From: Clostridium niameyense
GTDB taxonomy: Bacteria; Bacillota; Clostridia; Clostridiales; Clostridiaceae
Direction: 5' to 3'
Length of the DNA stretch: 64,000 nucleotides
Assembly (NCBI RefSeq): GCF_001243045.1
Contig: NZ_LN849007.1
Coordinates: forward strand, 338,989 to 402,988
Shown: one piece after another, positions 759-62,721 of the stretch
How the letters are laid out: each line of letters starts with the position of its first letter
Position numbering within the stretch: position 1 is the stretch's first letter
The notes under the pieces: model-generated
Database searches by the model: none
Told to the model about the DNA's origin: nothing
Seen by the model: only the letters and a program-made list of their open reading frames with translations
Program-made: the position numbers and the translations under genes

Positions 759-892
759 TATATCATCTCCTAACGAGTTCAATATAACTTTCTTCATATC
801 TCCATTTATTATATGAAAAATTATTAATTTGTGTTATAAAATATAGTGCTTTTACTAGGGTTAAGTGGTTATTTATATTACATAATGTTTAG

Positions 893-5308: not shown

Positions 5309-5350
5309 TAATTAAGGGGATAATTTATCCCCTTAATTATTATTTTTTTA
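5309..5350. terminator. Bidirectional rho-independent terminator
   Basis: A 14-bp perfect stem (5309-5322 with 5326-5339, loop ATT) is flanked by A/T-rich tails on both sides. It sits between the convergent activase and substrate-binding-protein genes and overlaps the stop codon of the latter. Confidence 0.85.
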
Positions 5351-6368: not shown

Positions 6369-6469
6369 AAAAACCTCCAAGATAAATTTTATATTAGTTC
6401 ATAATATGAGGACATTATTAATTATGTTAAATACTCTTATTTAATTTTGGTTTTGTAGGAAATATTAAA

Positions 6470-47300: not shown

Positions 47301-48118
47301 TTATTACCATTAATTTGAGAACCAAAGAAATTATCATCTGGGTTATTAGGACCAGATAATGCCGTCAAATTGGAGGAGTCAGGACCAAATAAAACTTGAT
47401 CTCCTTTTACATCAGCGGAAGCTTGCATGGCACTTACTAAAAATCTTGCAGTATTTGCTCTAGGAGATGGTTTAGTTTCAAAATTTGTAAAAGTTGTTTC
47501 ATAATTATCAGAGGTATTTATATGATCAAGACCATAATAAAAATTTATATATCTTGAATCGTATAGTTCAGGATTTTTGTAGATTACTACTAGAGTCCAA
47601 CCACAACAGTTATATACATTATTAGAGGGGGAAGTTGTGCCTACAACTTGGCTAACTGTATAAGTTCCATTTCCAGCAGGAGCAACATATTTAGTAACAT
47701 TCGCCATGTGGGAGTATAAAGAAACACTGGGATATGGTTGTGCATAATTAGTTTTATCAGCACTTAGATTACGTGGAGTGGGATTATTTGGGGCTGTAAA
47801 TTTAATTTTATTATTTGGAGCGGAACTTAAATCAGTTCCTGGAACTACGTAAGTGCCACCCCATATCAAATAGGCAAATTGAATTTCATTTCCTGAACCT
47901 AAATTTAAGATAGCTGAAGAAGAATTTTCAGATATATTTAAGGTAGTGCCAGCAGGGTAAGTAGGTACAGTAAGACCTGTATTAGTGGTTATAAATGCAC
48001 CAATAGCATCAGCGGTACCCATATCTTGACTATCTCGAGCTTTACTAAGTCCTAGGGTATTGCCTATAAATGTAATATTACCATTAATAACATTATTATA
48101 ACGAGACTCTAAAGCCAT
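44357..48118 (-). CDS. DUF11-repeat spore-surface-like protein A (6 repeats)
   Basis: This 1253-residue member of the local paralogous family has an N-terminal family domain (about 1-345) with NGNITFIGNTLGLSK, an LIWGGTY strand, NCCGWTLVVIYKNP, GDQVLFGPDSSNLT, FFGSQING and GGRQGWDITN. Six diverged DUF11 repeats follow (each with GDTxxYT...NxLPxGLSY), then an Ig/cadherin-like domain (YPSNGYASINEKG, YTPKVNFLGED) and the tail EFPYCLK with one cysteine. There is no signal peptide, membrane segment or sorting motif. The ATG follows AAAGGAAGTG. A sigma-K-like -10 box lies 31 bp upstream. I infer a spore-surface or appendage role; the biochemical function is unknown. Confidence 0.85.
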   Translation of the reverse strand: MALESRYNNVINGNITFIGNTLGLSKARDSQDMGTADAIGAFITTNTGLTVPTYPAGTTLNISENSSSAILNLGSGNEIQFAYLIWGGTYVVPGTDLSSAPNNKIKFTAPNNPTPRNLSADKTNYAQPYPSVSLYSHMANVTKYVAPAGNGTYTVSQVVGTTSPSNNVYNCCGWTLVVIYKNPELYDSRYINFYYGLDHINTSDNYETTFTNFETKPSPRANTARFLVSAMQASADVKGDQVLFGPDSSNLTALSGPNNPDDNFFGSQINGNNGSIDTSGTFGNRNHDILTATNVSGGRQGWDITNIDIESNITNSQKQAILKFQTSNDSYYPNAFALVTTIKSPSIVILINVSKYMLGSIGDTFKITMRISNSGEADANYILIKAALPYGLTGVLDSVTVDGVNQGHISIDEGFALSGLEVGKSITVEALAQVYAKPIKYPNQYVVYGDVYYKFANLIGGDYTGDKYSRSITLYSAPVDISKTSTKKIVNPTGDTVQYTINVTNNSNVTVNNVLITDVLPNGLSFSNNSVSVDGSNNSSNIVTTGVSLGTMAPSETHEILFTADVNSAPGSGEKYENFAKVAYQATFGSIPYNNEYTSPGYSIYTNAIIINPTINKIANKKIVTSGTDTVEYTISITNDSSNVNTNAMTDMVLTDSLPNGLSYKTGTLTIDGNNSSDSPTTGINIPNQLIHGGTTVIKFTADVNTEPPTGFEYVNQSTLTYKFNSPVGQQSNTANSNSNTIYSSSIVVKPTLNLTSNVSSVVLGDTIEYTATITNNNATEIENAIFNNGLPNGLSFIPNTLTINDTPNPATSLESNISLGNITNGNAVVVKYSAHVDSVPNDGLTYPNTFTLNYDFQSVAGKLNYTLRSNTDSITINIPIRATVVLSANKTYVTSIGDTIEYTATISNPTTNTNTNSIYDIILSDMLPKGLSYKTSSLTIDGISSNNPITNVSVGTLNHGNSSTIKFTAIVEAEPTTGNTYENLVKVNYKFQNALGENTGNINSNPVKVYSPSIIIHPTLNLKSNKYFVVVGDTASFTATVTNSTSTLINTATFSTKLPKGLSFVSNSLTINGDLYPDSAFNNPIELDAIPTSTSIIIKYSVKVTSASSNGGIYPNFFTINYSFTSPVGNLTNTINSNTVNLATNNTTINPLAFKNMVYKTAKNIPLVEKIISANISSNSLSYSIETYPSNGYASINEKGIFRYTPKVNFLGEDKFSILIENADIGSITLDINILVVTNLINPSGEFPYCLK

Positions 48119-48148: not shown

Positions 48149-48175
48149 TATAATATGATAATTATATTAATGTGA
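48149..48175 (-). promoter_or_regulatory. Candidate sigma-K promoter of DUF11 gene A
   Basis: The -10 box CATATTATA (minus strand, 48157-48149) fits CATANNNTA. The dinucleotide 16 bp upstream is TC, not AC; an AC occurs at a 14-bp spacing. The -10 fits well and the -35 is weak. Confidence 0.55.
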
Positions 48176-48293
48176 TATAAGTACAAATTTTTAATGAAAA
48201 AACATAAGAGATTACGTATCTTGTTTTATAAGTATAAATTTTTATATAACAAAGCAAAGTGGTAAAAGAATTAATTTTAGCTTTAATATTTTA

Positions 48294-51200
48294 TTAATTA
48301 AGACAGAATTTGCAATTTAAGAAATCGTAAGGTTTTTTTACTATAATAGTTATAGAAGAGATAGTTGAACCAAGATTTTTATCAGTAGATAATATAGAAA
48401 AACTATCCTCACCTATAAAATCTACTATAGGAGTATATGACCAAGAGTTGTCTGGATTAATTTTAAGATAACCATTAGTAGGATAAGAATGAATACTAGA
48501 ATTCACAGGAGATTTATCTAAATTATCTGCATAAATTTTCTTTTTAATAGGAGTATTTTTATAGGTTATATATATAGAATTTTTAGTACAAAGTGGATTT
48601 AATTGTATGGCGGTAGCAATTTTAGAAATTACATTATTAATATTTGTATTAACACTATAAGAAAGGTTAGTACCAAGTATTGAAAAATTGTATTTTACCG
48701 TAGCTGAATTAGGAAAATTACCACCATCTGGTTCAGTAGTTGCAACCGTTGAAAATTTAACTATAATGGTTTGCTTTGAATTAATATTACCTAAAGGTAC
48801 ACCTTTTGTAAGACAGTCATCTGCAAGGGGAGGGTCTGGAGGATTTCCATTAATAGTTATGCTATTAGGTATATATTGCAAACCAGTAGGTAATAAATCA
48901 GTTAATACAGCAGAAGCAACATTTTGTGAAGTTGGATTTATAATTTTTATAGTGTATTCAATATTAGAATTTTTATCTATAACTATAATGGATTGATTTG
49001 AATTAATAGTGGCAGTTAATAAAATAGGGGCAAATGAGTCTATTGTATTAGTTGTTATAGTACCAGGTAATACTCCAACGGGACTATTTAAGACATAACT
49101 TGCAGTGGCTAAATTTGGATAATTAAGTCCTGTAGAAGGTATTGAATTTACATTAGCTGTGAATTTTACAGTAATAGAATTCTTGGGTAATATATTGCCT
49201 AAAGTTATACTTGTATTAAGATTAAAATTTGAAGGATTCCCATTGATTGTTAAACTATTTGGTATATATATTAACCCAGATGGCAAGATATCAGTTAATT
49301 TAACAGCTGAGATGGTAATTTTATGGGGATTAGAAATAGTTATTATATAGTCAATATTATCTTTTTGAGGAGTTACTACGGTATTAGTCTTATTAGATTG
49401 AATTGATATAGTAGGTTTTACAATATAGTCATTATTAATTATAGTAAGTTTATTACTATAATCTTGAGCAGTTTCGTAAGCTGGTGGAACACCATCTCCT
49501 CCAGGAAGATTCATGTTATAGACTAATTCTGCTTGAATAGTATATTCATAAGTATCAGCAGCATTTGAAGTTACATTAGCAGTAAATTGAATTTTAAGTG
49601 GAGTATTAGGAACTAAAGTTGGAAGATCAATACCTTTTTCAATTGAATTTGTAATAGGTGAATTATTAAGGGTTAATGAATCTTCATTATATGATAAGCC
49701 CAAAGGAAGTTTATTCCCCACAATTTGTAAATTAGGATTAATAGCATTGTACTTAGCTGGATTATTAATTAAAACGGTGTATTCAATAGTATTACCTACA
49801 TTTACAATGTCTTTATTACAAGTTAAGTTAATTGTTGGTTCAGGTATATAATTTGTAGTATCTAGATATACAATGTTACTCATAAAATTGCCATCAACTT
49901 TACCAGTAGGAGTAGAAAAATTATAAGTTAAACTAGCAAAAGTTTTATAACGATTACTTTTAGGTATACCTATTGCAGTGGTGTCAAAGGTAACAATTAC
50001 TTTCTCACCTACATCTACTGCTCCCAAGGATATACCTGTTATTATTGAACCAGAATTAGAAGTACCATTAATAATTACACTTCCTGGCGTAAATGACATT
50101 TCAGGCGAAATATTAGCTTTTAAAATAACATTTTCTGCAGGTAGAGTTCCGGTATTTACAATATATACTTTATAAGATACTATAGCCCCGGTGCTAGCAA
50201 CATATGATCCGCAACTTAAGGCTGAAGTTAAAAAGTTAGGGGAGTTTACATCTATCTGAAATGCAACTGCATTTGGAACATATATGTTGGATGAAGTTTG
50301 ATAACGTATTAAAGCCACGGTTTCAGAGTTTTTTAGAATATTTGATGCATCTACATTAGTAATATCATATCCTTGACGACCAGCAATTATATTTTCTCCA
50401 GTATTATTAGTAGCATTAATAATTTGATTTCTATTACCAAAAGTACCATTAGTATCAGTTTCGCCTAAATCGTTGTTGATTTGAGATGCAAAAAAGTTAT
50501 TTGCTGCGTTTTTAGGCCCAGATAAAGGTGTTAAAGTTTTATTTGGATTAGAACCAAAGAGAACCTGATCTCCACCTATTGTAGCATCTCCACCTATTGC
50601 AGATAAGGCTATTCTAACATTTGTATCTCCACTTGAAGGAGTTTCAAATTGTCCTACAATTTGATTATCAATATAATCATTATTTATTAATACTAATCCA
50701 CCTGCTAAATTTATATATCTAGAGGGCATGGTTGGATTTTTATATATTACAGCTAATGTCCAGCCACAACAATTATCAGAATTATTTGATGCATTTACCG
50801 TACCTAATACATCACCAACTGTATAAGTTCCACTTAATCCTTGTTGAACTAAACTTGTAACATTTCCTTGGCAACTATAAATACCTACGTTACTAGTTTT
50901 ATTAACTTGTTGGAATTTATCGAATATAAAAGTGTATGTTATTGGAGGGGAAGTTGGAATAGTAAATTTAATTGGATCCTTTGTCTTGTGAATATAATTT
51001 ACACCATCAACTTGATAAGTACCACCCCAAAATAATTCAGCATATACAACTTCACTATTACTCGGTAAATTTAATACTGCGGATGAAGAATTTAAGTTCA
51101 TATTTAAAGTAGTGCCGTAAATAGTTGGATAGGTAGGAACATTAAATGAATTATTAGTTGACATAAAAGCTCCTATAGCATTGGCTGTACCAGCATCTTG

Positions 51201-51326
51201 ACTATTATTAGCCTTACTTAATCCTAATGAATTTCCTATAAAAGTGATGCCTCCGTTAATTACTGTAGAATAAATTTCGGGTATCATGTTAATTAAAGGT
51301 GAATAATTATCCTTTTTCATTATCAT
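48294..51326 (-). CDS. DUF11-repeat spore-surface-like protein B (4 repeats)
   Basis: This 1010-residue paralogue starts with a short extra N-terminus (MIMKKDNYSPLINM) before INGGITFIGNSLGLSK. The N-terminal domain has LFWGGTYQV, DNCCGWTLAVIYKNP, GDQVLFGSN and GRQGYDITNVD. About four divergent DUF11 repeats follow, then the Ig/cadherin-like domain (YPTNGYLKINPDNSW) and the tail FLNCKFCLN with a CxxC pair. It is richer in cysteines than gene A. The first ATG follows AAAGGAG by 4 bases; a second ATG six bases later is possible. No secretion signal is present. A sigma-K-like promoter is 38 bp upstream. Confidence 0.85.
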   Translation of the reverse strand: MIMKKDNYSPLINMIPEIYSTVINGGITFIGNSLGLSKANNSQDAGTANAIGAFMSTNNSFNVPTYPTIYGTTLNMNLNSSSAVLNLPSNSEVVYAELFWGGTYQVDGVNYIHKTKDPIKFTIPTSPPITYTFIFDKFQQVNKTSNVGIYSCQGNVTSLVQQGLSGTYTVGDVLGTVNASNNSDNCCGWTLAVIYKNPTMPSRYINLAGGLVLINNDYIDNQIVGQFETPSSGDTNVRIALSAIGGDATIGGDQVLFGSNPNKTLTPLSGPKNAANNFFASQINNDLGETDTNGTFGNRNQIINATNNTGENIIAGRQGYDITNVDASNILKNSETVALIRYQTSSNIYVPNAVAFQIDVNSPNFLTSALSCGSYVASTGAIVSYKVYIVNTGTLPAENVILKANISPEMSFTPGSVIINGTSNSGSIITGISLGAVDVGEKVIVTFDTTAIGIPKSNRYKTFASLTYNFSTPTGKVDGNFMSNIVYLDTTNYIPEPTINLTCNKDIVNVGNTIEYTVLINNPAKYNAINPNLQIVGNKLPLGLSYNEDSLTLNNSPITNSIEKGIDLPTLVPNTPLKIQFTANVTSNAADTYEYTIQAELVYNMNLPGGDGVPPAYETAQDYSNKLTIINNDYIVKPTISIQSNKTNTVVTPQKDNIDYIITISNPHKITISAVKLTDILPSGLIYIPNSLTINGNPSNFNLNTSITLGNILPKNSITVKFTANVNSIPSTGLNYPNLATASYVLNSPVGVLPGTITTNTIDSFAPILLTATINSNQSIIVIDKNSNIEYTIKIINPTSQNVASAVLTDLLPTGLQYIPNSITINGNPPDPPLADDCLTKGVPLGNINSKQTIIVKFSTVATTEPDGGNFPNSATVKYNFSILGTNLSYSVNTNINNVISKIATAIQLNPLCTKNSIYITYKNTPIKKKIYADNLDKSPVNSSIHSYPTNGYLKINPDNSWSYTPIVDFIGEDSFSILSTDKNLGSTISSITIIVKKPYDFLNCKFCLN

Positions 51327-51363
51327 ATAACTCCTTTCTACTTATGTTATAGATACTAATTAA

Positions 51364-51390
51364 TATAATATGATAACTTTTGTGTTATGT
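51364..51390 (-). promoter_or_regulatory. Candidate sigma-K promoter of DUF11 gene B
   Basis: AC (51390-51389), 16 bp, then CATATTATA (51372-51364) on the minus strand. This matches the sigma-K consensus AC-N16-CATANNNTA fully. Confidence 0.7.
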
Positions 51391-51557
51391 TTCATAAATA
51401 TAGATTTAAGCTATTAAGTGTAGATTAGTTTTATAAAAATAAATTTAATTTAAAATTTATATTTTTTATAAAGTAAATTAAAGCATATATATTTCATATA
51501 ATTCAACTTTTGATATCTTAAAAAGAACTGCTAAATATGTAAAATGGTAAATTTATG

Positions 51558-51602
51558 AACTAAATAAGGCTAATGGTGTAAAATCCAAAGCCTTATTTAG
51601 TT
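51558..51602. terminator. Terminator-like hairpin after DUF11 gene C
   Basis: A 14-bp perfect stem (51558-51571 with 51589-51602) lies just past the stop of gene C. The rest of 51327-51607 holds the promoter of gene B and AT-rich sequence without a gene. Confidence 0.65.
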
Positions 51603-51607
51603 TTAAA

Positions 51608-54600
51608 TTAACATAGATTATATTTAAAATCACTACTGCTTTTTATAATTACCGTAATAGTTGAAGTAATAGAACCTAATTTTTTATTTGATAATAATAA
51701 AGAAAATGTATCTTTACCTATAAAGTCTATTTTAGGTGTGTATATTAAAGTGCCATTTTCTGAAATAGATGCATATCCGTTTAAAGGATAAGTGTTTAAA
51801 CTGTAAGTTATAGGACTGCTAGTAAGATTAAGCATATCTATATTTTCAATAAGTGGATTATTTTTAGAGGTTATATAAGTAATGTGTTTAAAAATAAGTG
51901 GATTAATAATAGTAGAATTAATAAAAATTATATTATTATTACTATTAAGAATATTAGTAAGCTCACCTCCTGGACTTTGGAAGTTATACTTTATAGTAGC
52001 TAGACTTAAATATTGAATTCCATCAGGGGGAAGAGAATTTACACTACATTGAAAAATTACTGTTGAAGTTTTATTAGGAGATATATTAGCTAAGGAAATA
52101 TCATTTTTAATAGACTCTGATGAATTGCTACCATTAATATTTAAACTGTTAGGTATAAAAGCTAAACCATTAGAAATCTTGAATGTTACAATAGGATTTT
52201 CAATAATTGTACTATTGTTGTTTTCCACCAACAATGTAAATTTAACATAATCTCCTATACTCACAGAACGTTTACTAGAATTTAAGATTATATTAGGTTT
52301 TATAATAATTGCATTACTGTGTATAGTATTGTTAGCAGAAATTTTATTAGATAGGGTTCCTGCAATACTATTAAAGTCATAATCAAGATTAACATTATTT
52401 ATATATTCAATACCTAAAGAAGGTGTACTAACAACAGTTGCTTTAAATTCAACAGTAACGGGGTTAGTTAAATCAATATTAGGCAAGGTTACACCAGTTT
52501 CTAAGGAATTTGTAGATTCAGTACCATTGACAGTTAAAGAATTTGCTTTATAAGTTAATCCTGATGGTAAAGTATCAGTCAAAACTGGATTTTCAATAAT
52601 AGTGGAAGTATCATTTGAGATAGTAATTGAGTATATTACGATGTCGTTGATATTTACAATATTAGGATTAGCAGAAATATTGATATTAGGAGTAATGACA
52701 ATGCTATCAGAGTAAATATTGTTAGTAGCAGAAACAGAGCTAGATAAATCAGTATTATCTGGGGATTTAAAAGTGTAAGAAAGTGTAGCAGAATTACTAT
52801 ATTTATTACCAGTAGTAGGATTGGAATTAACATTAGCAGTAAATTTAATAGTAGAAGTAGTATTAGGAGCTATAGTGTTTAAATTAATAGCAGTTATGGG
52901 ATCTTTAGAATCAGTACCATCAATAGTTAAAGAATCATTTACATAAGAAAAGCCGTCAGGCAGAGTATCATTTAAAGTAACAGAGTCAATAGATTCAGTA
53001 AGACTAGTATTTTTAACAGAGATAGTGTACTGAACAGTATTGCCAATAGCAACTACATGCTCAATGGCATTACTAGATTTATCAGAGATGGAAATAGTAG
53101 GAGTAATAACAACGCTATTAGAGTAAATGCTGTTAGTAGAGGAAACAGAGCTAGATAAATCAGTATTATCTGGAGACTTAAAAGTGTAAGAAAGTGTAGC
53201 GGAATTAATATATTTATCACCAGTAGTAGGATTGGAATTAACATTGGCAGTAAATTTAATAGTAGAAGTAGTATTAGGAGCTATAGTGTTTAAATTAATA
53301 GCAGTTATGGGATCCGTAGAATCAGTACCATCAATAGTTAAAGAATCATTAACATAAGATAATTCGGGAGGTAAAGTATCGCTTAAAATAACAGAGTTAA
53401 TAGATTCAGTTAAACTAGTATTTTTAACAGAGATAGTGTACTGAACAGTATTGCCAACAGCAACTACATGATCAATGGTATTACTAGATTTATCAGAGAT
53501 AGAAATAGTAGGAGTAATAACAATGCTATTAGAGTAAATATTGTTAGTAGAGGAAACAGAGCTAGATAAATCAGTATTATCTGGAGACTTAAAAGTATAA
53601 GAAAGTGTAGCGGAATTAGTATATTTGTCACCAGTAGTAGGATTGGAATTAACATTGGCAGTAAATTTAATAGTAGAAGTAGTATTAGGAGCTATAGTAT
53701 TTAAATTAATATTAGTTATGGGATCCGTAGAATCAGTACCATCAATAGTTAAAGAATCATTTACATAAGAAAAGCCGTCAGGCAGAGTATCATTTAAAGT
53801 AACAGAGTCAATAGATTCAGTAAGACTAGTATTTTTAACAGAGATAGTGTACTGAACAGTATTGCCAACGGCAACTACATGCTCAATGGCATTACTAGAT
53901 TTATCGGAGATAGAAATAGTAGGAGTAATAACAACGCTATTAGAGTAAATATTGTTAATAGCAGAAACAGAGCTAGATAAATCAGTATTATCTGGAGACT
54001 TAAAGGTGTAAGAAAGTGTAGCGGAATTAGTATATTTGTCACCAGTAGTAGGATCGGAATTAACATTAGCAGTAAATTTAATAGTAGAAGTAGTATTAGG
54101 AGCTATAGTGTTTAAATTAATATTAGTTATGGGATCCGTAGAATCAATATCATCAATAGTTAAAGAATTAGCAACATAAGAAAGGCCGTCAGGCAGAGTA
54201 TCATTTAAAGTAACGGAGTCAATAGATTCTGTTAAACTGGTATTTTTAACAGAGATAGTGTACTGAACAGTATTGCCAACAGCAACTACATGCTCAATGG
54301 CATTACTAGATTTATCAGAGATAGAAATAGTAGGAGTAATAACAACGCTATTAGAGTAAATATTGTTAATAGCAGAAACAGAGCTAGATAAATCAGTATT
54401 ATCTGGAGACTTAAAAGTGTAAGAAAGTGTAGCGGAATTAGTATATTTATCACCAGTAGTAGGTGCTGAATTAACATTAGCAGTAAATTTAATAGTAGAA
54501 GTAGTATTAGGAGCTATAGTGTTTAAATTAATATTAGTTATGGGATCCGTAGAATCAGTATCATCAATAGTTAAAGAATCATTAACATAAGATAATTCGG

Positions 54601-56215
54601 GAGGTAAAGTATCGCTTAAAATAACAGAGTTAATAGATTCAGTAAGACTAGTATTTTTAACAGAGATAGTGTACTGAACAGTATTACCAACGGCAACTAC
54701 ATGCTCAATGGCATTACTAGATTTATCAGAGATAGAAATAGTAGGAATTATGGATATATTACTAGAATATATAACATCAGTAGTTGTATCGCTTCTATTT
54801 ATAGTATCTATAGTACCTGAAGTAATTGTGTTATTGGGAACATCAAAGCTATAATCTATTTTGACAGAGTTAATGTATTTAGAATTACTATGGGCAGGAC
54901 CATTTACGGTAGCTTTAAATTTTACAGGAATAGTTTGACCGATATTAATAGGTCCTAATGATACACCAGCTGTAGGATCTCCAGCAGTAGATGTATCGTT
55001 AACAATTAAAGTATTTGAATTATAGGAAAATCCACTAGGCAATGTATCAGTCAAAGTTACATTTTTAGCATCTACGTCTCCTGAATTTTTTACATAAATT
55101 GTGTATTCTACAATATCTCCTATACTTACAATATTTTTATTAGCAGTTATATTTAAATTACTAAATAGAGGAGTGGCTATATCTATTTGTGTAGCTATAC
55201 CATTAACAAAATACTCACGAGCACTAGCCTTAAATTGTAACACTGCAGAAGTTTGATTATTACTCAATTTATTGCTTGCATCTACATTAGTTATATCTTG
55301 ACTTTGACGTCCACCAGGGACATTAGTTGTATTTATAATGTCTTGATTTCTATCTCCAAAGGTACCAAAGGAATCTAGTTCTCCTAGGTCATTATTAATC
55401 TGTGACCCAAAAAAATTATCCACCATATTTCGTGGACCAGATAAAGGAGTTAAGTCAGAAATAGTTGATCCAAATAAAACCTGGTCGCCGGTATCAACTG
55501 CAGAACCACGTAAAGCAGATAATAATATTCTACCTTTAGCGGATCTAGATAATGGTGTTTTAAAATTAGATAAATTTAAGTCAAAAGTAGAATTGGGTGC
55601 TATAGGTTGAATATTACTGTATAGTGATATATATCTAGAGGGAAGAGATTGATTTTCATAACAAACAGCTAGTGTCCATCCACAACTATTATAAGAATTA
55701 TTATCTTGTTGATTGGTTCCAATAGCTCCGCTTAGTACATAAATTCCAGACATGGATCTACTTACGTATTCTGTTACATTTGACCAATTTGTATAAAATG
55801 TACAACTGCCATCATCTGAAACTTCCAGTCTCCTTCCGTCCAGCTTAGATTTATCTATAGTTATTGACTGAGGGGGCGTTGTTGGTATAATAAATTGAAT
55901 TGTAGCATTTAATGTTTCAGAAATATGATCTTCATGTTGTACTTGGCAAGTACCACCCCAAATTAGTTCTGCATGTAAGATAGTACTACCTTCTGGAATA
56001 GTTAATTTAGCGGAGGAAGAATTTGAAGTATAAGATAATGTGGTACCATTTGGATAAGTGGGAACAATATCGCTTGTATTGGTAGTTATATAGGCACCTA
56101 TTGAACTAGCAGTACCAATATCTTGGCTATTAAGTGCTTTACTTAATCCTAAAGAATTTCCAGTGAAAGTAATAGCCCCATTTACGTTTTGAGAAAATAC
56201 AGTAGTTATAGGCAT
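51608..56215 (-). CDS. DUF11-repeat spore-surface-like protein C (8 repeats, 5 nearly identical)
   Basis: This is the largest family member at 1535 residues. The N-terminal domain (about 1-345) has NGAITFTGNSLGLSK, LIWGGTCQV, NSCGWTLAVCYENQ, GDQVLFGSTISDLTPL and GGRQSQDITNVD. One diverged DUF11 repeat is followed by five nearly identical 137-residue repeats (about residues 490-1175; each with VGNTVQYTISVKNTSLTESI), two diverged repeats shared with gene D, and an Ig/cadherin-like domain ending KYNLC. There is no signal peptide or anchor. Single cysteines are scattered through the N-domain. The ATG follows GAAGGGAG. A full sigma-K consensus lies 42 bp upstream. Confidence 0.87.
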   Translation of the reverse strand: MPITTVFSQNVNGAITFTGNSLGLSKALNSQDIGTASSIGAYITTNTSDIVPTYPNGTTLSYTSNSSSAKLTIPEGSTILHAELIWGGTCQVQHEDHISETLNATIQFIIPTTPPQSITIDKSKLDGRRLEVSDDGSCTFYTNWSNVTEYVSRSMSGIYVLSGAIGTNQQDNNSYNSCGWTLAVCYENQSLPSRYISLYSNIQPIAPNSTFDLNLSNFKTPLSRSAKGRILLSALRGSAVDTGDQVLFGSTISDLTPLSGPRNMVDNFFGSQINNDLGELDSFGTFGDRNQDIINTTNVPGGRQSQDITNVDASNKLSNNQTSAVLQFKASAREYFVNGIATQIDIATPLFSNLNITANKNIVSIGDIVEYTIYVKNSGDVDAKNVTLTDTLPSGFSYNSNTLIVNDTSTAGDPTAGVSLGPINIGQTIPVKFKATVNGPAHSNSKYINSVKIDYSFDVPNNTITSGTIDTINRSDTTTDVIYSSNISIIPTISISDKSSNAIEHVVAVGNTVQYTISVKNTSLTESINSVILSDTLPPELSYVNDSLTIDDTDSTDPITNINLNTIAPNTTSTIKFTANVNSAPTTGDKYTNSATLSYTFKSPDNTDLSSSVSAINNIYSNSVVITPTISISDKSSNAIEHVVAVGNTVQYTISVKNTSLTESIDSVTLNDTLPDGLSYVANSLTIDDIDSTDPITNINLNTIAPNTTSTIKFTANVNSDPTTGDKYTNSATLSYTFKSPDNTDLSSSVSAINNIYSNSVVITPTISISDKSSNAIEHVVAVGNTVQYTISVKNTSLTESIDSVTLNDTLPDGFSYVNDSLTIDGTDSTDPITNINLNTIAPNTTSTIKFTANVNSNPTTGDKYTNSATLSYTFKSPDNTDLSSSVSSTNNIYSNSIVITPTISISDKSSNTIDHVVAVGNTVQYTISVKNTSLTESINSVILSDTLPPELSYVNDSLTIDGTDSTDPITAINLNTIAPNTTSTIKFTANVNSNPTTGDKYINSATLSYTFKSPDNTDLSSSVSSTNSIYSNSVVITPTISISDKSSNAIEHVVAIGNTVQYTISVKNTSLTESIDSVTLNDTLPDGFSYVNDSLTIDGTDSKDPITAINLNTIAPNTTSTIKFTANVNSNPTTGNKYSNSATLSYTFKSPDNTDLSSSVSATNNIYSDSIVITPNINISANPNIVNINDIVIYSITISNDTSTIIENPVLTDTLPSGLTYKANSLTVNGTESTNSLETGVTLPNIDLTNPVTVEFKATVVSTPSLGIEYINNVNLDYDFNSIAGTLSNKISANNTIHSNAIIIKPNIILNSSKRSVSIGDYVKFTLLVENNNSTIIENPIVTFKISNGLAFIPNSLNINGSNSSESIKNDISLANISPNKTSTVIFQCSVNSLPPDGIQYLSLATIKYNFQSPGGELTNILNSNNNIIFINSTIINPLIFKHITYITSKNNPLIENIDMLNLTSSPITYSLNTYPLNGYASISENGTLIYTPKIDFIGKDTFSLLLSNKKLGSITSTITVIIKSSSDFKYNLC
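51640..52695 (-). repeat. 3' segment shared with DUF11 gene D
   Basis: The last two DUF11 repeats and the Ig-like domain of gene C are nearly identical to 56530-57590 in gene D. The closest match is around 52270-52670 (both encode NPIVNINDIV-like and GVTLPNIDLTNPVTVEFKA segments). This suggests recent duplication or gene conversion. Confidence 0.8.
52690..54745 (-). repeat. Five tandem 411-bp repeats inside DUF11 gene C
   Basis: The marker AACTACATG recurs at 53051, 53462, 53873, 54284 and 54695, always 411 bp apart, so each unit encodes 137 residues in phase. Units differ by a few substitutions that are mixed between copies (PPELSYVNDS in units 1 and 4, PDGFSYVNDS in 3 and 5), a sign of unequal crossover. 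Confidence 0.95.
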
Positions 56216-56256
56216 AAAATACTCCCTTCTTAATTTTATAAAATTCTTATCATTAG

Positions 56257-56283
56257 TATAATATGAATTTAATTATAGTAAGT
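56257..56283 (-). promoter_or_regulatory. Candidate sigma-K promoter of DUF11 gene C
   Basis: AC (56283-56282), 16 bp, then CATATTATA (56265-56257) on the minus strand. This is a full match to the consensus. Confidence 0.7.
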
Positions 56284-56364
56284 TTATAAATATATTAGAA
56301 ATTTTAATATTATAAATATGTTAATTTAAAATAATAGTGGATATAAATCTTAGATTATAAAAAT

Positions 56365-56409
56365 AAAAAGTATAGATTAAGATCAATAGATAATTAATCT
56401 ATACTTTTT
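56365..56409. terminator. Terminator after DUF11 gene D
   Basis: A 16-bp perfect stem (56365-56380 with 56394-56409) is followed, on the minus strand, by TATTTTTAT. The rest of 56216-56489 holds the gene C promoter and no gene. Confidence 0.75.
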
Positions 56410-56489
56410 AAGAAAGTGTTTTATTATATTGAATTTGATAGTTTATGAGAGAAAAATTCAGAAGTATAATCATGAGTTGAATTTTTTAG

Positions 56490-59400
56490 TTAGTTTTTTA
56501 ATGCACAAAAGTTATTTTTAACGTTATTATTATCTTTTACAATAACAATAATGGTGGAAACAACAGAATCTAGATCTTTATTTGATAATAGTAATGAAAA
56601 CGTATCTTCACCTATAAAATCTATTTTAGGTGTATATACTAAAGTGCCATTTTCTGAAATAGATGCATATCCGTTTGCAGGATAAGTATTTAAATTATAA
56701 GTTATAGGAGTATTAGTAAGGTTAAGTCCACCTATATTTTGAATAAGTGGATTATTTTTGGAAATTGTATAAATAAGCGTAGGTGAAATAAGCGGATTAA
56801 CTACAAAAGATTTAATAAAAAGTGAATTAATATTACTATCAAGAACATTAGTAAGCTGACCTCTTGGACTTTGGAAACTATATTTTATAGTAGCTAAGTT
56901 TAAATACCTAATACCATCAGGAGGAGTAGAATTTACCCTACATTGAAAAATTACTGTTGAAGTTTTATTAGGAGATATATTAGCTAAGGAAATATCATTT
57001 TCGATAGACTCTGATGAATTGCTACCATTAATATTTAAACTGTTGGGTATAAAAGTTAAACCATTAGAAACTTTGAATGTTACAATAGGATTTTCAATAG
57101 TTATACTATTGATATTTTCTACTAACAATGTAAATTTAACATAATCTCCTATACTCACAGAACGTTTACTAGAACTTAAAATTATATTAGGTTTTATAAT
57201 AATTGCATTACTGTGTATAGTATTATTAGCAGAAATTTTATTAGATAGGGTTCCTGCAATACTATTAAAGTCATAATCAAGATTAACATTATTTATATAT
57301 TCAACACCTACAAAAGGCGTACTAACAACAGTTGCTTTAAATTCAACAGTAACGGGGTTAGTTAAATCAATATTAGGCAAGGTTACACCAGTTTCCAAGG
57401 AATTTGTAGATTCAGTACCATTGACAGTTAAAGAATTTTCTTTATAAGTTAATCCTGATGGCAAAGTATCGGTCAAAACTGGATTTTCAATAATAGTGGA
57501 AGTATCATTTGATACATTAATTGAGTATGTTACTATGTCATTGATATTTACAATATTAGGATTAGCAGAAATACTAATATTAGGAGTAATTATAATAGAG
57601 TCAGAGTATACAGTACTATTAGCTGATACTGTATTACTTAAGGCAGTATTATCAGGAGTTAAGAATTCATAATTAACTACAGTATTAGTAACATATTGGG
57701 AACCACTAGATGGAGTGCCAGTAACATTAGCAGTAAATTTTATAGTAGCAGTACTATTAGAATTAATAGTACCTATATCTATAGAAGATATATTATCAGT
57801 AGAAGGACGATCATTAACGTATAAAGTATCAGGTTTATAAGTAAGACCTTCAGGAAGAGTATTTTCTAAAATAACATTTTGTACAAAATCAGATGCACTA
57901 GGGTTAGTAACTGTAATAGTATAATTAATGGTATCTTCAATTCCTGCCACATTTGGAATGGTATTACTAGATTTAGCGGTTTCTTTAACAGTAGGGATAA
58001 TTACAATTGAATCGGAATATATACTGTTACTAGTTGACATATCATTACTTAAAGTAGCATTATCGTCAGTTATGAATTCATAGTCAATGTCAGCAGTATT
58101 AACATATTTAGAGTCACTAGGAGGAGCTCCAGTAACTTTAGCGGTAAAATTAATATTAATAACAGTTTCCTTAGGAACAATATCTACATTTATAGAAGAT
58201 AAATCATTGGATGAAGGTTTACCGTTAACAATTAAGGAATTGGCTTTATAGGTTAAGCCTGTGGGAAGAGTATCTTTTACAACAGTATTAATCATTTCAG
58301 TAAGTGGCTGGTAATTAAAGATAGTAATAGTATAATCAATAGTATCCCCAGTACCGGCTACTTCTGAAATAGGATTGCTAGATACAGCTCTTTTTGACAA
58401 AATTGGTATTACAGCAATGGATTTATTATAGATAACATTAGGAGTAATTGCAAAATTTTTAACTACATCACCACCAGGATTTTTAAATGCATAATTAAGA
58501 TTTGCTCGATTTATATAGGTATACCCACCTCCTGTAACAGGAGCATTTACAGTAGCAGAAAATGTTAGAGTAGTAGTTTGATTATGAGAAAGCTCCCTTA
58601 AAGGAACAACTGTTGTGACATCTGTGGAAGTTTGCCCACCATCAATTACTAGAGAATTAGGAACAAACGAAAATTCAGGAGGTAATATATCTTTTAAAGT
58701 TATATACTGAGCCAAAATATTGCCAGTGTTTGTAACTTTTATAGTAAAATTAACAGTATCACCTACAGTTACATATTTTTTATCTGTAGTAATAACTGAT
58801 GTATCAAATATGGGCGAGTCTATATCTATTTGGGTTCCAAGGGTGCTGATACAATAAGTGTCATTAGTAGTATTAAATCTTATAGTAGCAGAAGTTTGAT
58901 TATTAGTAAGAGCAGATGATCCATCAACATTTGTAATATCAATTCCTTGACGACCTGCTACTATATTAACTCCAGTATGAATATTTTGATTTCTATCTCC
59001 AAAAGTACCAGTAGTATCTGTATTTCCAGTATCGTTATTAATCTGAGAACCAAAAAAGTTATTTGTCAAATTTTCAGGGCCATATAGGGGAGTTAAATTT
59101 GATGTATCAGGTCCAAATAAAACTTGATCTCCGTTAATTGTAGCATCCCCATTTAAAGCAGAAAGTAAAAGTCTACCTTTAGGAGTACTATATACTGGGG
59201 TAGTAAAGTTTGTTGTAGTAATATCAACAGGTGTTCCTACACCAACGTAATCTATGCCTACATATAAGGAAAAGTTTCTTGCAGGTAAAAATCGGTTATT
59301 ATATAGTACAGCTAGTATCCAACCACAACAATTAAGATTATTTTCATCTATAGCAGTGGTACCAACTACATTAGAGACTTTAAATGTTCCTGGATGTTGT

Positions 59401-59885
59401 ACATATCTAGTTACATCAGCCCAATTAGTATAGAATGTATAAGGTTGACTAGAGCTAGGGGATGAAGGATATAGTTGCTTACCATCTGGGGAGATGGCTT
59501 GTGTTTCATAGGTAATGGAATCAGCAGTAGATGGACTTGTAGGAAATTCGAAATTTATTGGATTTCCTACAAGAGATTGATTATCCTGTGAACCTGACAT
59601 TCCATATCTAACAATAGAACTCCCCCCCCAAATTAAATAGGCAGAGTGTATAGTAGAACCGTCAGGTATGTTTAATACTGCCTTAGAAGAATTGGTACTT
59701 ATAGAGGAAGTAGTGCCTTCTGGATAATTAGTAACCTGAGAATTTGAATCAACAATTGTATATGCACCTATAGAATTAGCAGTTCCAGCATTAGAAGTAT
59801 TATCTTCTTTGCTCAATCCTAAAGTATTTCCTGTAAACGTCATGCCGCCAGTAAGATTGGTTTGATATGCAAGATATAATGACAT
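56490..59885 (-). CDS. DUF11-repeat spore-surface-like protein D (5 repeats)
   Basis: This 1131-residue paralogue has an N-terminal domain with LTGGMTFTGNTLGLSK, LIWGGSSIV, NCCGWILAVLYNN, GDQVLFGPDTSNLTPLYGP and GRQGIDITNVD. Five DUF11 repeats follow; the last two and the Ig-like end are nearly identical to those of gene C. The tail NNFCALKN has one cysteine. The frame is open 17 codons further upstream, but the ATG at 59885 (MSLYLAYQ) has the GAAAGGAGATC ribosome binding site and aligns with the starts of the other members. No secretion signal is present. A near-consensus sigma-K promoter is 49 bp upstream. Confidence 0.86.
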   Translation of the reverse strand: MSLYLAYQTNLTGGMTFTGNTLGLSKEDNTSNAGTANSIGAYTIVDSNSQVTNYPEGTTSSISTNSSKAVLNIPDGSTIHSAYLIWGGSSIVRYGMSGSQDNQSLVGNPINFEFPTSPSTADSITYETQAISPDGKQLYPSSPSSSQPYTFYTNWADVTRYVQHPGTFKVSNVVGTTAIDENNLNCCGWILAVLYNNRFLPARNFSLYVGIDYVGVGTPVDITTTNFTTPVYSTPKGRLLLSALNGDATINGDQVLFGPDTSNLTPLYGPENLTNNFFGSQINNDTGNTDTTGTFGDRNQNIHTGVNIVAGRQGIDITNVDGSSALTNNQTSATIRFNTTNDTYCISTLGTQIDIDSPIFDTSVITTDKKYVTVGDTVNFTIKVTNTGNILAQYITLKDILPPEFSFVPNSLVIDGGQTSTDVTTVVPLRELSHNQTTTLTFSATVNAPVTGGGYTYINRANLNYAFKNPGGDVVKNFAITPNVIYNKSIAVIPILSKRAVSSNPISEVAGTGDTIDYTITIFNYQPLTEMINTVVKDTLPTGLTYKANSLIVNGKPSSNDLSSINVDIVPKETVININFTAKVTGAPPSDSKYVNTADIDYEFITDDNATLSNDMSTSNSIYSDSIVIIPTVKETAKSSNTIPNVAGIEDTINYTITVTNPSASDFVQNVILENTLPEGLTYKPDTLYVNDRPSTDNISSIDIGTINSNSTATIKFTANVTGTPSSGSQYVTNTVVNYEFLTPDNTALSNTVSANSTVYSDSIIITPNISISANPNIVNINDIVTYSINVSNDTSTIIENPVLTDTLPSGLTYKENSLTVNGTESTNSLETGVTLPNIDLTNPVTVEFKATVVSTPFVGVEYINNVNLDYDFNSIAGTLSNKISANNTIHSNAIIIKPNIILSSSKRSVSIGDYVKFTLLVENINSITIENPIVTFKVSNGLTFIPNSLNINGSNSSESIENDISLANISPNKTSTVIFQCRVNSTPPDGIRYLNLATIKYSFQSPRGQLTNVLDSNINSLFIKSFVVNPLISPTLIYTISKNNPLIQNIGGLNLTNTPITYNLNTYPANGYASISENGTLVYTPKIDFIGEDTFSLLLSNKDLDSVVSTIIVIVKDNNNVKNNFCALKN
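56530..57590 (-). repeat. 3' segment shared with DUF11 gene C
   Basis: This is the counterpart of 51640-52695. The two copies differ by scattered substitutions, more towards the Ig-like end. Confidence 0.8.
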
Positions 59886-59933
59886 AGTGATCTCCTTTCT
59901 GATATTTATAAAATAATTATACTGATTTAATAT

Positions 59934-59960
59934 CATAATATGAGTAAATTTATAATGGGT
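59934..59960 (-). promoter_or_regulatory. Candidate sigma-K promoter of DUF11 gene D
   Basis: AC (59960-59959), 16 bp, then CATATTATG (59942-59934) on the minus strand. There is one mismatch in the -10 (final G for A). Confidence 0.6.
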
Positions 59961-59987
59961 TTAAAAAATAAAAGTATAATGAATAAT

Positions 59988-62531
59988 TTAATTATTATCG
60001 TTGCAACAATCTAATTCATCCAAAGAATTAGGAAAATCTTTTATCACTATAGTTACAGTTGAAATACTAAAATTACTATATTCGTCTTTTACCAATATAT
60101 TAAAGATATCCATGCCTATAAAGTTAACTTTAGGAGTATATATCCAGAAACCTTCTTCGTTTATGTCTGCATATCCATTTTCAGGAGATTTATATAATGC
60201 ATATTTCAATTTAGCATCATTTAAATTAAAGAAATCTATTTTCCCTGTAAGTGAATTGTTTTTATAAATAGTTTTCTTATAATTAAAAGTTATAGGTTTT
60301 ATATTGAGATAAGAGGAATTATCAATATATACGTTATTTGTAGTTATGATACTATTATTTAATAAAGTGTTACTAGGTGATGAAAATTCATAACTTATAC
60401 TTGCAGAGTTTTTATAACTAAAACCTACAGTTTTGGCTATATAATTAACTATAACAGTATCATTAGGTGATATATTTCCTAAATTAATACCAGTTTCGAT
60501 ATTTTCAGAGGTAGGTTTATGGTTAACAGTTAAGGAATCATGTTCCATTAATAGGCCATTTGGTATTGAATCTTTAAATATAACATTTTTGATTATTTTA
60601 TTACTAGGATTATGGATAGTAATAGTGTAGTTAATGGTATCACCTACATTAGCAATATTGTGGTCTGGATTACTGGATACAGCATCTTTAATTAAAATAG
60701 GAAAAATGCTAACATTTGAATGGGTTATAATATTTGTAGCTGTAATGTTATTAGAAAGAGGACCATCCAGTGTATTAAATTTATAGCTTAAAGTTGCAGA
60801 ATCAATATATTCTGAATTTACATTACTAGATTTAGAATTAAAAGTAGCTTTAAATTTAACTATAATAGTTTGCCAAGAATTAATAGTACCAAGAGAAATT
60901 ATAGTTTCAGGAGTAGAATTTATTAATATATTATTTATAGTTAAAGAATTAGGCAGATAGGAAAGTTCAGGAGGTAGGATATTTGTTAAAATTGCATCTT
61001 CAATAGGAATAGTTTCAGTATTACTAATTTTTATTGTATATTCTACTATATCATCTACAGAAATTATGGTAGGATTGGCCGTAATATTTATGTTAGGTTC
61101 TACAATTATAGATGATGAATATAATTTACTCATGTTACTTTTAGAAGTAGCAGATACAATATTAGGTGCATTTCCAACTTTATAATTTATGGTAGCAAGA
61201 TTTACATAGTTAAAATTATTACTGGGATCTGAATTTACCTTAGCCTTAAATTTTACTAAAATTGTTTTAGATGAAGCCAAATTACCTAAGTTGACGCCTG
61301 TTACAGGAGAATCATTAGAGGGATTTCCATCAATGATTAAGGAATTAGGAACAAAAGATAATTCAGAAGTCAATGTATCTGTTAAGAATAATTCATTTAA
61401 AGTGGCAGTAGTATTATTTGATATGGAAATAGTGTATTCTACAATATCTTCTACAGAAGCAAATGTTTGTGAGACAGTTTTTTTTATGTTATTAAGCTCA
61501 GGAATGTCTATATCGATTTGTAATCCTAACATATTCAATAAATAATTATTATTAGTAGTTATGAATTTTAAAATACTTGAATTTTGAGAATTTGAGAGTC
61601 CAGATGATACATCTACATTAGTAATATCCCATCCTTGACGTCCACCTACCATATTAGTTCCTGTTAATATATCTTGATTTAAATCTCCGAAACTACCAGA
61701 TGTATCTATATTTCCATTATCATCGTTAATTTGAGATCCAAAAAAATGATTAGGTAAGTTTCTAGGACCAGATAAATAAATTAAATTATAATCGTTAGGG
61801 CCAAATAAAACCTTATTATCACCTAATGTGGCAGATGCATGCATAGCACTGAATAATGCTCTCCCTTTTGGAGAAACCAACTTGGGGGTTTTTGAAAATG
61901 AAGATGTTATACTAAAAGGGGTAGAAGAAGTAACTTCTTCCAATCCGCTATAAATAGATATAGATCTAGCAGGAAGGGTTGGATTAGTATATACAACAGC
62001 TAGTGTCCACCCACCACAATTATTAGAATTATCAGTGGCTTCACTTGTTACAGGAAATTCAGCTACTGAATATTTAGCACTCATGCTTTTTTTTATTTCA
62101 TTTGTAACTACTGAATAGCAACTATAGAATACTACATCTTTAGTTTTATCTGTAAAATAAGTTTTATCTTGAAAAATATATTCTGTAGGGTAAGGTGGGT
62201 CTACGGCTTTTAATCTTACATTATTTGAAACTGGAGGTATTCGATTTTCACCTGGAACTTTGCAACATCCTCCCCAAGATAGTATTGCAAATGCCACATC
62301 ACATCCTTTAGGAATGCTTAATGTAGCTGTAGAAGAATCGAATGAATAATTTAATGTTGTATAAGGTGGATAAGTTGCAACTTGGAGATAATCAAGATGA
62401 CTCATAAGTGCACCTATAGAATTGGCAGTACCTGCATCTTGAGAATTGTCTTTTTTACTTAATCCAATTGCATTTCCAGTAAAAGTAATGCCACCATTAA
62501 TATTTTGAGAAAAAATTAAATCAGTAGCCAT
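59988..62531 (-). CDS. DUF11-repeat spore-surface-like protein E (3 repeats)
   Basis: This 847-residue paralogue has an N-terminal domain with NGGITFTGNAIGLSK, LSWGGCCKVPG, NNCGGWTLAVVYTNP, NKVLFGPNDYNLIYLSGP and GGRQGWDITNVD. Three divergent DUF11 repeats, an Ig/cadherin-like domain (SPENGYADINEEGFWIYTP) and the tail LDCCNDNN with a CC pair follow. The double cysteine seen as NCCGW in most members is NCGGW here, while an extra CC appears in WGGCC. No signal peptide or anchor is present. The ATG follows GAAAGGAGTATT. A full sigma-K consensus is 53 bp upstream. Confidence 0.85.
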   Translation of the reverse strand: MATDLIFSQNINGGITFTGNAIGLSKKDNSQDAGTANSIGALMSHLDYLQVATYPPYTTLNYSFDSSTATLSIPKGCDVAFAILSWGGCCKVPGENRIPPVSNNVRLKAVDPPYPTEYIFQDKTYFTDKTKDVVFYSCYSVVTNEIKKSMSAKYSVAEFPVTSEATDNSNNCGGWTLAVVYTNPTLPARSISIYSGLEEVTSSTPFSITSSFSKTPKLVSPKGRALFSAMHASATLGDNKVLFGPNDYNLIYLSGPRNLPNHFFGSQINDDNGNIDTSGSFGDLNQDILTGTNMVGGRQGWDITNVDVSSGLSNSQNSSILKFITTNNNYLLNMLGLQIDIDIPELNNIKKTVSQTFASVEDIVEYTISISNNTTATLNELFLTDTLTSELSFVPNSLIIDGNPSNDSPVTGVNLGNLASSKTILVKFKAKVNSDPSNNFNYVNLATINYKVGNAPNIVSATSKSNMSKLYSSSIIVEPNINITANPTIISVDDIVEYTIKISNTETIPIEDAILTNILPPELSYLPNSLTINNILINSTPETIISLGTINSWQTIIVKFKATFNSKSSNVNSEYIDSATLSYKFNTLDGPLSNNITATNIITHSNVSIFPILIKDAVSSNPDHNIANVGDTINYTITIHNPSNKIIKNVIFKDSIPNGLLMEHDSLTVNHKPTSENIETGINLGNISPNDTVIVNYIAKTVGFSYKNSASISYEFSSPSNTLLNNSIITTNNVYIDNSSYLNIKPITFNYKKTIYKNNSLTGKIDFFNLNDAKLKYALYKSPENGYADINEEGFWIYTPKVNFIGMDIFNILVKDEYSNFSISTVTIVIKDFPNSLDELDCCNDNN

Positions 62532-62583
62532 GCAATACTCCTTTCAAATATTATTTATATGCTTATAAGGCTTTGATTTAATA

Positions 62584-62610
62584 TATTTTATGATATAAGA
62601 ATGATAAGGT
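62584..62610 (-). promoter_or_regulatory. Candidate sigma-K promoter of DUF11 gene E
   Basis: AC (62610-62609), 16 bp, then CATAAAATA (62592-62584) on the minus strand. This is a full match to the consensus with a different spacer triplet from the other genes. Confidence 0.68.
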
Positions 62611-62642
62611 GTTAGATAAAGCGTAATTAAAGATAGATACTA

Positions 62643-62684
62643 AATTAGCCCTTTTATATTATTTATAATATAAAAGAGCTAATT
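62643..62684. terminator. Long hairpin after DUF11 gene F
   Basis: A 20-position stem with a single mismatch (62643-62662 with 62665-62684) encloses a 2-nt core. It lies between the stop of gene F and the promoter of gene E and probably ends the gene F transcript, though no long U run follows. Confidence 0.6.
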
Positions 62685-62721
62685 ACATAATATTTATTAT
62701 TAGTAAAATAATATTTTTCTT

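What the first reader, a model, noticed from the sequence alone, without database searches (positions are those of the whole stretch)
48149..62610. Shared sigma-K-type promoters upstream of all visible DUF11 genes
All five visible upstream regions carry a CATANNNTA-like box 31-53 bp before the start codon. Genes B, C, D and E have AC exactly 16 bp before it (51389, 56282, 59959, 62609). Genes B, C and E match AC-N16-CATANNNTA fully, D has one -10 mismatch and A has a weak -35. Sigma-K is the late mother-cell factor that drives coat and exosporium genes. The shared spacing is hard to explain by AT-richness alone, though a similar AC-N17-CATATTATG also occurs at 6400-6427 upstream of the substrate-binding protein gene, so chance matches exist.
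Basis: partly seen in the sequence, partly recalled or inferred. Interest (0 to 1): 0.85.

Follow-up and report, generated by a model that had tools for sequence, protein, structure and literature searches.

The report
Late-sporulation promoters before spore-surface-type genes
A row of large repeat-protein genes in an unidentified low-GC clostridium carries on-switches of the kind used late in spore formation, so the proteins are probably made by the mother cell to build the outside of the spore; close precedents exist, so this is a well-supported new example rather than a new kind of system.

Summary
Observation confirmed. AC-N16-CATANNNTA lies before genes B, C and E; D has it with a variant last base; A has only the -10 box. 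Full N16 motif: 3 of 5 DUF11 genes, 0 of 37 other window genes; N16/17: 0 of 302 genes sampled from Oceanirhabdus. The -10 boxes agree far above chance (87% against 38%); spacers do not. Clostridial homologues often repeat it (7 of 21 against 0 of 74 control ORFs), but 12 of 21 lack even the looser form. yabG, with a sigma-K promoter in C. difficile, has AC-N16/17-CATANNNT in 18 of 23 genomes of the family; spoIVA (sigma-E) in 0 of 23, though mostly because it lacks the box. Hairpins suggest units F | E-D | C | B-A, with the complete promoters at the heads of the last three. No signal peptides or terminal sorting motifs. Some homologues sit beside endospore-appendage genes or before BclA_C-like genes. 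Best reading: sigma-K-driven spore-surface or appendage proteins made in the mother cell. Precedent: DUF11 appendage genes of C. taeniosporum with predicted sigma-K promoters. I have no expression data.

The parts
62584..62610 (-). promoter of E: AC-N16-CATAAAATA (second AC at gap 18)
   Evidence: full match, -10 box begins 61 bp before the start
59934..59960 (-). promoter of D: AC-N16-CATATTATG, last base off consensus; overlaps an upstream ATG that is probably not the start
   Evidence: the same CATATTATG variant is seen at yabG in L170
56257..56283 (-). promoter of C: AC-N16-CATATTATA
51364..51390 (-). promoter of B: AC-N16-CATATTATA
48149..48173 (-). weak promoter-like site of A: CATATTATA with AC at gap 14 only
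   Evidence: AC at gap 14 was not seen in any of 23 yabG regions
44357..48118 (-). gene A, 1253 aa, N-domain + DUF11 repeats + Big_9
48294..51326 (-). gene B, 1010 aa
51608..56215 (-). gene C, 1535 aa, with five 411-bp repeats at 52683-54746
56490..59885 (-). gene D with revised start, 1131 aa
59988..62531 (-). gene E, 847 aa
62722..63999 (-). gene F, 5' end outside the window, so its promoter is not visible
62637..62690 (-). hairpin after F, ahead of the E promoter (terminator-like, weak T run)
   Evidence: z -5.77 for the 100-nt stretch 62622-62721
56363..56416 (-). hairpin after D, ahead of the C promoter (terminator-like, T-rich tail)
   Evidence: z -4.75 for the 100-nt stretch 56340-56439
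51554..51607 (-). hairpin directly after C, ahead of the B promoter (terminator-like, weak T run)
   Evidence: z -4.83 for the 100-nt stretch 51508-51607

Best explanation
Four of the five visible DUF11 genes (B, C, D, E) are transcribed late in sporulation, in the mother cell, by RNA polymerase carrying sigma-K from the AC-N16-CATANNNTA sites. A is probably reached by read-through from B, perhaps helped by its orphan -10 box, and D by read-through from E plus its own slightly off-consensus promoter. The large proteins have no export signal; they are made in the mother-cell cytoplasm and laid onto the outside of the developing spore as coat, exosporium or appendage material. Shown here: the motif, its position, its low background, its recurrence in part of the homologues, and its match to yabG promoters in the same family. 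Inferred: use by sigma-K in this organism, timing, read-through, and spore-surface location.
For: Full N16 motif 3 of 5 against 0 of 37 genes of the window and, with gap 16 or 17, 0 of 302 genes in 400 kb of Oceanirhabdus. Between paralogues AC is identical in B-E and the -10 boxes agree 87% against 38% expected from shuffles, while the spacer (42% against 38%, P 0.16) and the 30 bp downstream (37% against 37%, P 0.37) are at chance and the DNA further upstream barely above it (41% against 37%, P 0.03). Clostridial homologues: AC-N16/17-CATANNNTA in 7 of 21 against 0 of 74 other ORFs and 0 of 21 reverse strands, shuffle mean 0.25. yabG: AC-N16/17-CATANNNT in 18 of 23 genomes, AC at gap 16 in 7 and 17 in 11. 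Seven of 21 carrier genomes pass the cut-off of the sigma-K model. No signal peptide (strongest 15-residue hydropathy in the first 50 aa 0.49-1.20, against 2.34 and 2.85 for two lipoprotein-like proteins of the window). Homologues beside Ena genes and before genes with weak BclA_C matches. Strong hairpins lie between F/E, D/C and C/B but not E/D or B/A, matching the strong and weak promoters.
Against: No transcript data. A fails the -35. 14 of 21 clostridial homologues lack the full motif and 12 of 21 lack even AC-N16/17-CATANNNT; the looser CATANNNT box is nearly as common on their reverse strands (13 of 21) as on the forward ones (16 of 21), and AC-N16/17-CATANNNT occurs on 2 reverse strands. 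The 74 control ORFs are raw ORFs of 150 aa or more, some perhaps not genes. Bacilli homologues have the -10 box (CATANNNT 39 of 55, reverse strand 14) but AC at 16/17 in only 1 of 55. The spoIVA control mostly lacks any CATA within 120 bp (17 of 23), so it does not test AC against ATA. Fourteen of 21 carriers match the sigma-K model only below its cut-off, and the model also rings below cut-off in 11 of 14 control genomes. Thermus (5) and Deinococcus (1) plasmid records encode the N-domain; they are not known to form spores (recalled). Ena neighbours were found at only 2 of 65 Bacilli loci plus the Priestia plasmid, and none of 5 Ena queries hit the window.
Confidence: 0.79

Rival explanations
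1. The promoters belong to sigma-E, the earlier mother-cell factor, which has a nearly identical -10 box.
For: Very similar -10 in C. difficile (passage). Gene A has ATA at gap 18 and no AC at 16-18. The spoIVA control does not exclude it, because 17 of 23 spoIVA regions hold no CATA within 120 bp.
Against: AC at the sigma-K position in 4 of 5; ATA in no consistent position (A 18, B 13, C 19, D and E none). Among clostridial homologues AC peaks at gaps 16-18 (3, 6, 5 regions), ATA does not (2, 1, 2).
Confidence: 0.13
2. The boxes are AT-rich coincidence; the genes use ordinary vegetative sigma-A promoters.
For: The region is AT-rich; the sigma-70 scan lists a 10-of-12 site over the A promoter (48176-48147) and a 9-of-12 site near that of E (62607-62580).
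Against: 134 sigma-70-like sites against 129.6 in shuffles, so that scan has no power here; no TTG or TTGAC at gaps 10-21 before any of the five boxes; shuffles never reach the observed counts of the AC-containing motifs.
Confidence: 0.05
3. The boxes are shared only because the genes are recent duplicates, without function.
For: The genes are paralogues, and C and D share 1232 bp at 87%.
Against: Spacer and downstream DNA agree no more than shuffles, also between C and D (33-56%). Part of the distant clostridial homologues keep the same arrangement.
Confidence: 0.03

Closest known systems
Clostridium taeniosporum spore-appendage gene region (CRD1, CRD2, P29a, P29b, GP85, CL2)
   Same: Four of nine proteins hold DUF11; five predicted sigma-K promoters, consensus [a/c]AC[a/c]-N16-CATA-N3-TA (AC gap 17 by this writing); all genes in one direction (passages of PMC5749712)
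   Different: The DUF11/CRD proteins whose lengths the passages give have 564 aa or less, and collagen-like partners are present; here at least six large proteins (847-1535 aa for the five complete ones) share a ~350-aa N-domain, and the visible array holds no other gene-like ORF between them. Homology to P29/CRD was not tested.
Sigma-K promoters of Bacillus subtilis and Clostridioides difficile
   Same: AC -35 in C. difficile with a -10 very like that of sigma-E (PMC3789822); B. subtilis spacing 14-16 nt between a 5-nt and a 10-nt element (PMC517825), compatible with AC gap 16 if AC lies inside the 5-nt element (passages only; the logo was not seen)
   Different: AC gap 16 in all four, the short end of what homologues show (3, 6, 5 regions at gaps 16, 17, 18)
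Endospore appendage (S-ENA) loci of Bacilli
   Same: An N-domain DUF11 gene starts within 100 bp of an Ena (PF13157) gene in Rossellomorea, Bacillus sp. RO3 and a Priestia plasmid
   Different: The window proteins are not Ena subunits, and none of 5 Ena queries hit the window
F-Anchor-3 of Clostridium aceticum
   Same: DUF11 repeats in a clostridial appendage anchor (passage of PMC11952670)
   Different: It has DUF4183 and CsxA-like domains; Pfam reported no DUF4183 and nothing named CsxA for the six window proteins at E 0.001

Membership tests
sigma-K-dependent promoter | AC in the -35 region | tested here: met
   B, C, D, E yes; A no
sigma-K-dependent promoter | CATANNNTA -10 box | tested here: met
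   A, B, C, E full; D has G for the last A
sigma-K-dependent promoter | spacing as at a known sigma-K gene of the family | tested here: met
   gap 16 in B-E; yabG regions show gap 16 in 7 and gap 17 in 11 of 23 genomes
sigma-K-dependent promoter | transcription lost in a sigK mutant, late mother-cell timing | not testable with these tools
   needs RNA; own genome not held
sigma-E-dependent promoter | ATA in the -35 region at a fixed gap | tested here: not met
   no consistent ATA before the five boxes; the spoIVA comparison adds little, as 17 of 23 regions hold no CATA within 120 bp
DUF11 repeat proteins (PF01345) | Pfam match over the curated cut-off | tested here: met
   six of six proteins, 36.2-241.3 bits against 24.6
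sortase-anchored cell-wall proteins | signal peptide and LPxTG-like motif with hydrophobic tail | tested here: not met
   five complete proteins: no hydrophobic leader; one internal IPSTG in B only
S-ENA appendage subunits (PF13157) | Enas domain | tested here: not met
   not reported by Pfam for the six proteins; no tblastn hit of 5 Ena queries in the window at E 0.001
C. taeniosporum appendage proteins | sequence homology to P29a/CRD1/CRD2 | not tested
   their sequences were not fetched
spore-surface structural proteins | presence on purified spores | not testable with these tools
   inferred from promoters, lack of export signal and gene neighbours of some homologues

The most novel reading that the evidence does not exclude
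The ~350-aa N-domain with DUF11 repeats defines a widespread but unnamed family of mother-cell-made spore-surface proteins across Bacilli and Clostridia, working with endospore appendages (as anchor or as the still unidentified tip fibrillae of S-ENA), and this organism has expanded it into an array of six or more size variants, nearly each with its own sigma-K switch.
Probability: 0.3. Interest if true: 0.72.

Novelty: new member of a known kind. Interest (0 to 1): 0.5.

Why it matters
It proposes a time and a cell compartment for a large family known only as 'domain of unknown function', and so gives a testable role for N-domain DUF11 proteins, whose best 80 of 242 loci found are mostly from Paenibacillus. 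The neighbourhood of some homologues with Ena and BclA_C-like genes points to the outer spore surface; a 2026 paper states that the genes for S-ENA tip fibrillae are unidentified and that sigma-K probably drives the ena genes (passages of PMC12921279).

Tried and rejected

Rows dropped before counts: L089-L102 (partial N-domain matches only), L124 (partial), 7 of 100 places without a start, duplicates L081-L085; 65 Bacilli loci were thinned to 55 by upstream similarity. Start codons in homologues, yabG and spoIVA were chosen by a simple ribosome-site rule; several (L120-L123, L160, L164, L169) are uncertain. The window genes were given 120 bp of upstream sequence, the homologues, yabG and spoIVA 200 bp. 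All six window proteins were scanned with Pfam, only three of them with NCBIfam. Bacilli genomes were not searched for copy number.

Full report
What is there. Six minus-strand genes (A-F, F cut by the window edge) follow the pheS-pheT-zapA genes. All six match DUF11 over the curated cut-off and end in a Big_9-type domain. The five complete copies share a ~350-aa N-domain; B-E are 42-49% identical to A. The window is 28.8% GC. Its pheT is closest (72%) to a genome in the family of Oceanirhabdus among 391 genomes drawn from that class, and 70-72% identical to both genomes held of the nearest genus. The species is not held and was not identified.

The observation. B, C and E have AC-N16-CATANNNTA; D has AC-N16-CATATTATG; A has CATATTATA without a usable AC. 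D's start should be moved to 59885, where the paralogue alignment and a ribosome site agree. The -10 boxes then begin 39-61 bp before the starts.

Is it chance? The -10 box alone is not enriched in the window and the full N16 motif occurs five times, twice elsewhere, so raw counts mean little. Position does: 3 of 5 DUF11 genes against 0 of 37 other genes for the full N16 motif, 3 of 5 against 1 of 37 for full N16/17, and 4 of 5 against 2 of 37 for AC-N16/17-CATANNNT (p 0.00087, 0.0034 and 0.00064). In 5000 shuffles of the five regions these counts were never reached. In 400 kb of Oceanirhabdus, a relative of like GC with yabG, spoIVA and sigma-K genes, 0 of 302 genes have the full N16/17 motif within 120 bp and 3 of 302 have AC-N16/17-CATANNNT (genes called by a simple script). 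Registered on the -10 box, the five upstream regions agree at AC (B-E, 100%) and in the box (87% against 38% in shuffles); spacer (42% against 38%) and downstream DNA (37% against 37%) are at chance, and DNA further upstream is barely above it (41% against 37%, P 0.03).

Is it sigma-K? C. difficile passages list a sigma-K promoter for the yabG-like gene and a mapped sigma-E promoter for spoIVA, and say that the two factors share very similar -10 sequences and differ by AC against ATA in the -35 element (PMC3789822). In 23 genomes of the Oceanirhabdus family, yabG has AC-N16/17-CATANNNT in 18 of 23 upstream regions (12 of 23 with the full box), with AC at gap 16 in 7 and at gap 17 in 11; spoIVA has it in 0 of 23. 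So the motif, including gap 16 and the CATATTATG variant (seen at L170), marks a sigma-K gene in this family. The spoIVA result is weaker than it looks: only 3 of 23 regions have CATANNNT and 17 of 23 no CATA within 120 bp, so it does not test AC against ATA. The case against sigma-E rests on AC being present in four of five and ATA having no fixed place. Gene A remains unexplained as a promoter.

Homologues. The best 80 of 242 loci in public genomes are mostly Paenibacillus. Among 206 genomes in the family of Oceanirhabdus, 18 have a match; 11 of 297 and 3 of 73 genomes in the orders of a Clostridia MAG and of Desulfosporosinus have one at E 1e-30 or better. In these three searches no genome has more than two matches; Bacilli were not counted for copy number. 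Of 21 clostridial homologues, 7 have AC-N16/17-CATANNNTA and 9 have AC-N16/17-CATANNNT within 200 bp, against 0 and 3 of 74 other ORFs of the same loci and 0 and 2 of 21 reverse strands. AC peaks at gaps 16-18 (3, 6 and 5 regions). Twelve of 21 have no such site, and the loose CATANNNT box is almost as common on the reverse strand (13) as on the forward one (16). In Bacilli the CATANNNT box is strongly enriched (39 of 55 against 63 of 369 other ORFs, 14 of 55 reverse strands), but the upstream element differs. Of 21 clostridial carrier genomes tested, 7 pass the cut-off of the sigma-K model; the other 14 match below it, which could be divergent or split sigma-K or sigma-E, and the model also rings below cut-off in 11 of 14 control genomes.

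What the proteins do. The five complete proteins have no hydrophobic leader and no C-terminal sorting signal, unlike the surface pilins with which the repeats of C and E share a family match. Relatives lie directly beside endospore-appendage (Ena) genes on a Priestia plasmid and in Rossellomorea and Bacillus sp. RO3, and upstream of a group of related genes in two Oceanirhabdus genomes, two of which show weak BclA_C matches in L011 (E 1.9e-7 and 5.9e-4, both below Pfam's cut-off; same order in L058). The Priestia appendage operon has CATATCTTT with AC at gaps 16 and 18 before its first Ena gene. These links are few: Ena queries hit only two of the 65 Bacilli loci, besides the plasmid-like contigs. 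The N-domain model is rich in strands and without a specific match. I conclude that spore-surface or appendage material is the most likely product.

Transcription units. Hairpins stand after F, C and D (z -5.77, -4.83 and -4.75 for the 100-nt stretches that hold them); none stands between E and D (z 0.15) or B and A (z -0.99 for 100 of 175 nt; best hairpin of the whole gap -5.8 kcal/mol). The tool's own terminator scan, which asks for G+C-rich stems, does not list them, and the T runs after F and C are weak. If they end transcription, the units are F | E-D | C | B-A, and the complete promoters stand at the heads of E-D, C and B-A while the two imperfect ones (D, A) are internal. This is a reading made after the fact, not shown.

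Known or new. DUF11 appendage genes with five predicted sigma-K promoters were described in C. taeniosporum (passages of PMC5749712), and a DUF11-bearing appendage anchor in C. aceticum (passage of PMC11952670). Paper searches for DUF11 with spore and Clostridium (8 papers), exosporium (2), spore coat (5) and sporulation (23, of which 15 were listed) gave no other spore-surface DUF11 study that I recognised in the listings. The case is therefore a well-supported new member of a known kind. What may be new is the N-domain family as a spore-surface family shared by Bacilli and Clostridia, and its expansion here; I give that 0.3.

Noticed in passing
52683-54746: Gene C holds five 411-bp repeats at 93% match; C and D share 1232 bp at 87% near their 3' ends, a sign of recent expansion or recombination in the array.
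   Followed up: partly
L015 4057-5001, L027 4022-4965, L148 7607-10896: Ena endospore-appendage genes directly next to the N-domain DUF11 gene; a candidate partner, anchor or tip of S-ENA fibres.
   Followed up: partly
L028, L049 (contigs named Trichococcus and Sphingomonas): These contigs carry Ena genes 97-100% identical to those of Priestia plasmid pPmC-142-6, so the organism labels are probably contamination or a shared plasmid.
   Followed up: partly
Paenibacillus loci, e.g. L013, L032, L022 upstream of the match: A conserved ACANACA-N17/18-CATA element before the N-domain gene in 25 of 65 Bacilli loci; a stricter form has 1-3 matches per genome in 7 genomes searched (one of them Oceanirhabdus), while the backward control pattern has 0-3. 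Possibly a lineage-specific mother-cell promoter form.
   Followed up: partly
L011 7057-8680 and 8942-10624: Downstream of the Oceanirhabdus DUF11 gene lie three related genes, two with weak BclA_C matches, and a repeated pair of small cysteine-containing genes (104-110 aa), conserved in L058; perhaps an unstudied spore-surface cluster.
   Followed up: partly
807-834 (-) and 6400-6427 (-): The two other sigma-K-like sites found before genes of the window lie before an ABC ATPase (3-797) and an NMT1-type binding protein (5340-6380); chance or a real late-sporulation transporter.
   Followed up: no
Gene C repeats: NCBIfam scores the repeats as isopeptide-forming fimbrial domains (TIGR04226, 169.8 bits, 7 stretches), so intramolecular isopeptide cross-links are possible.
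   Followed up: no
plasmid collection hits: Thermus (5 records) and Deinococcus (1) plasmids encode the N-domain, outside the known sporeformers.
   Followed up: no
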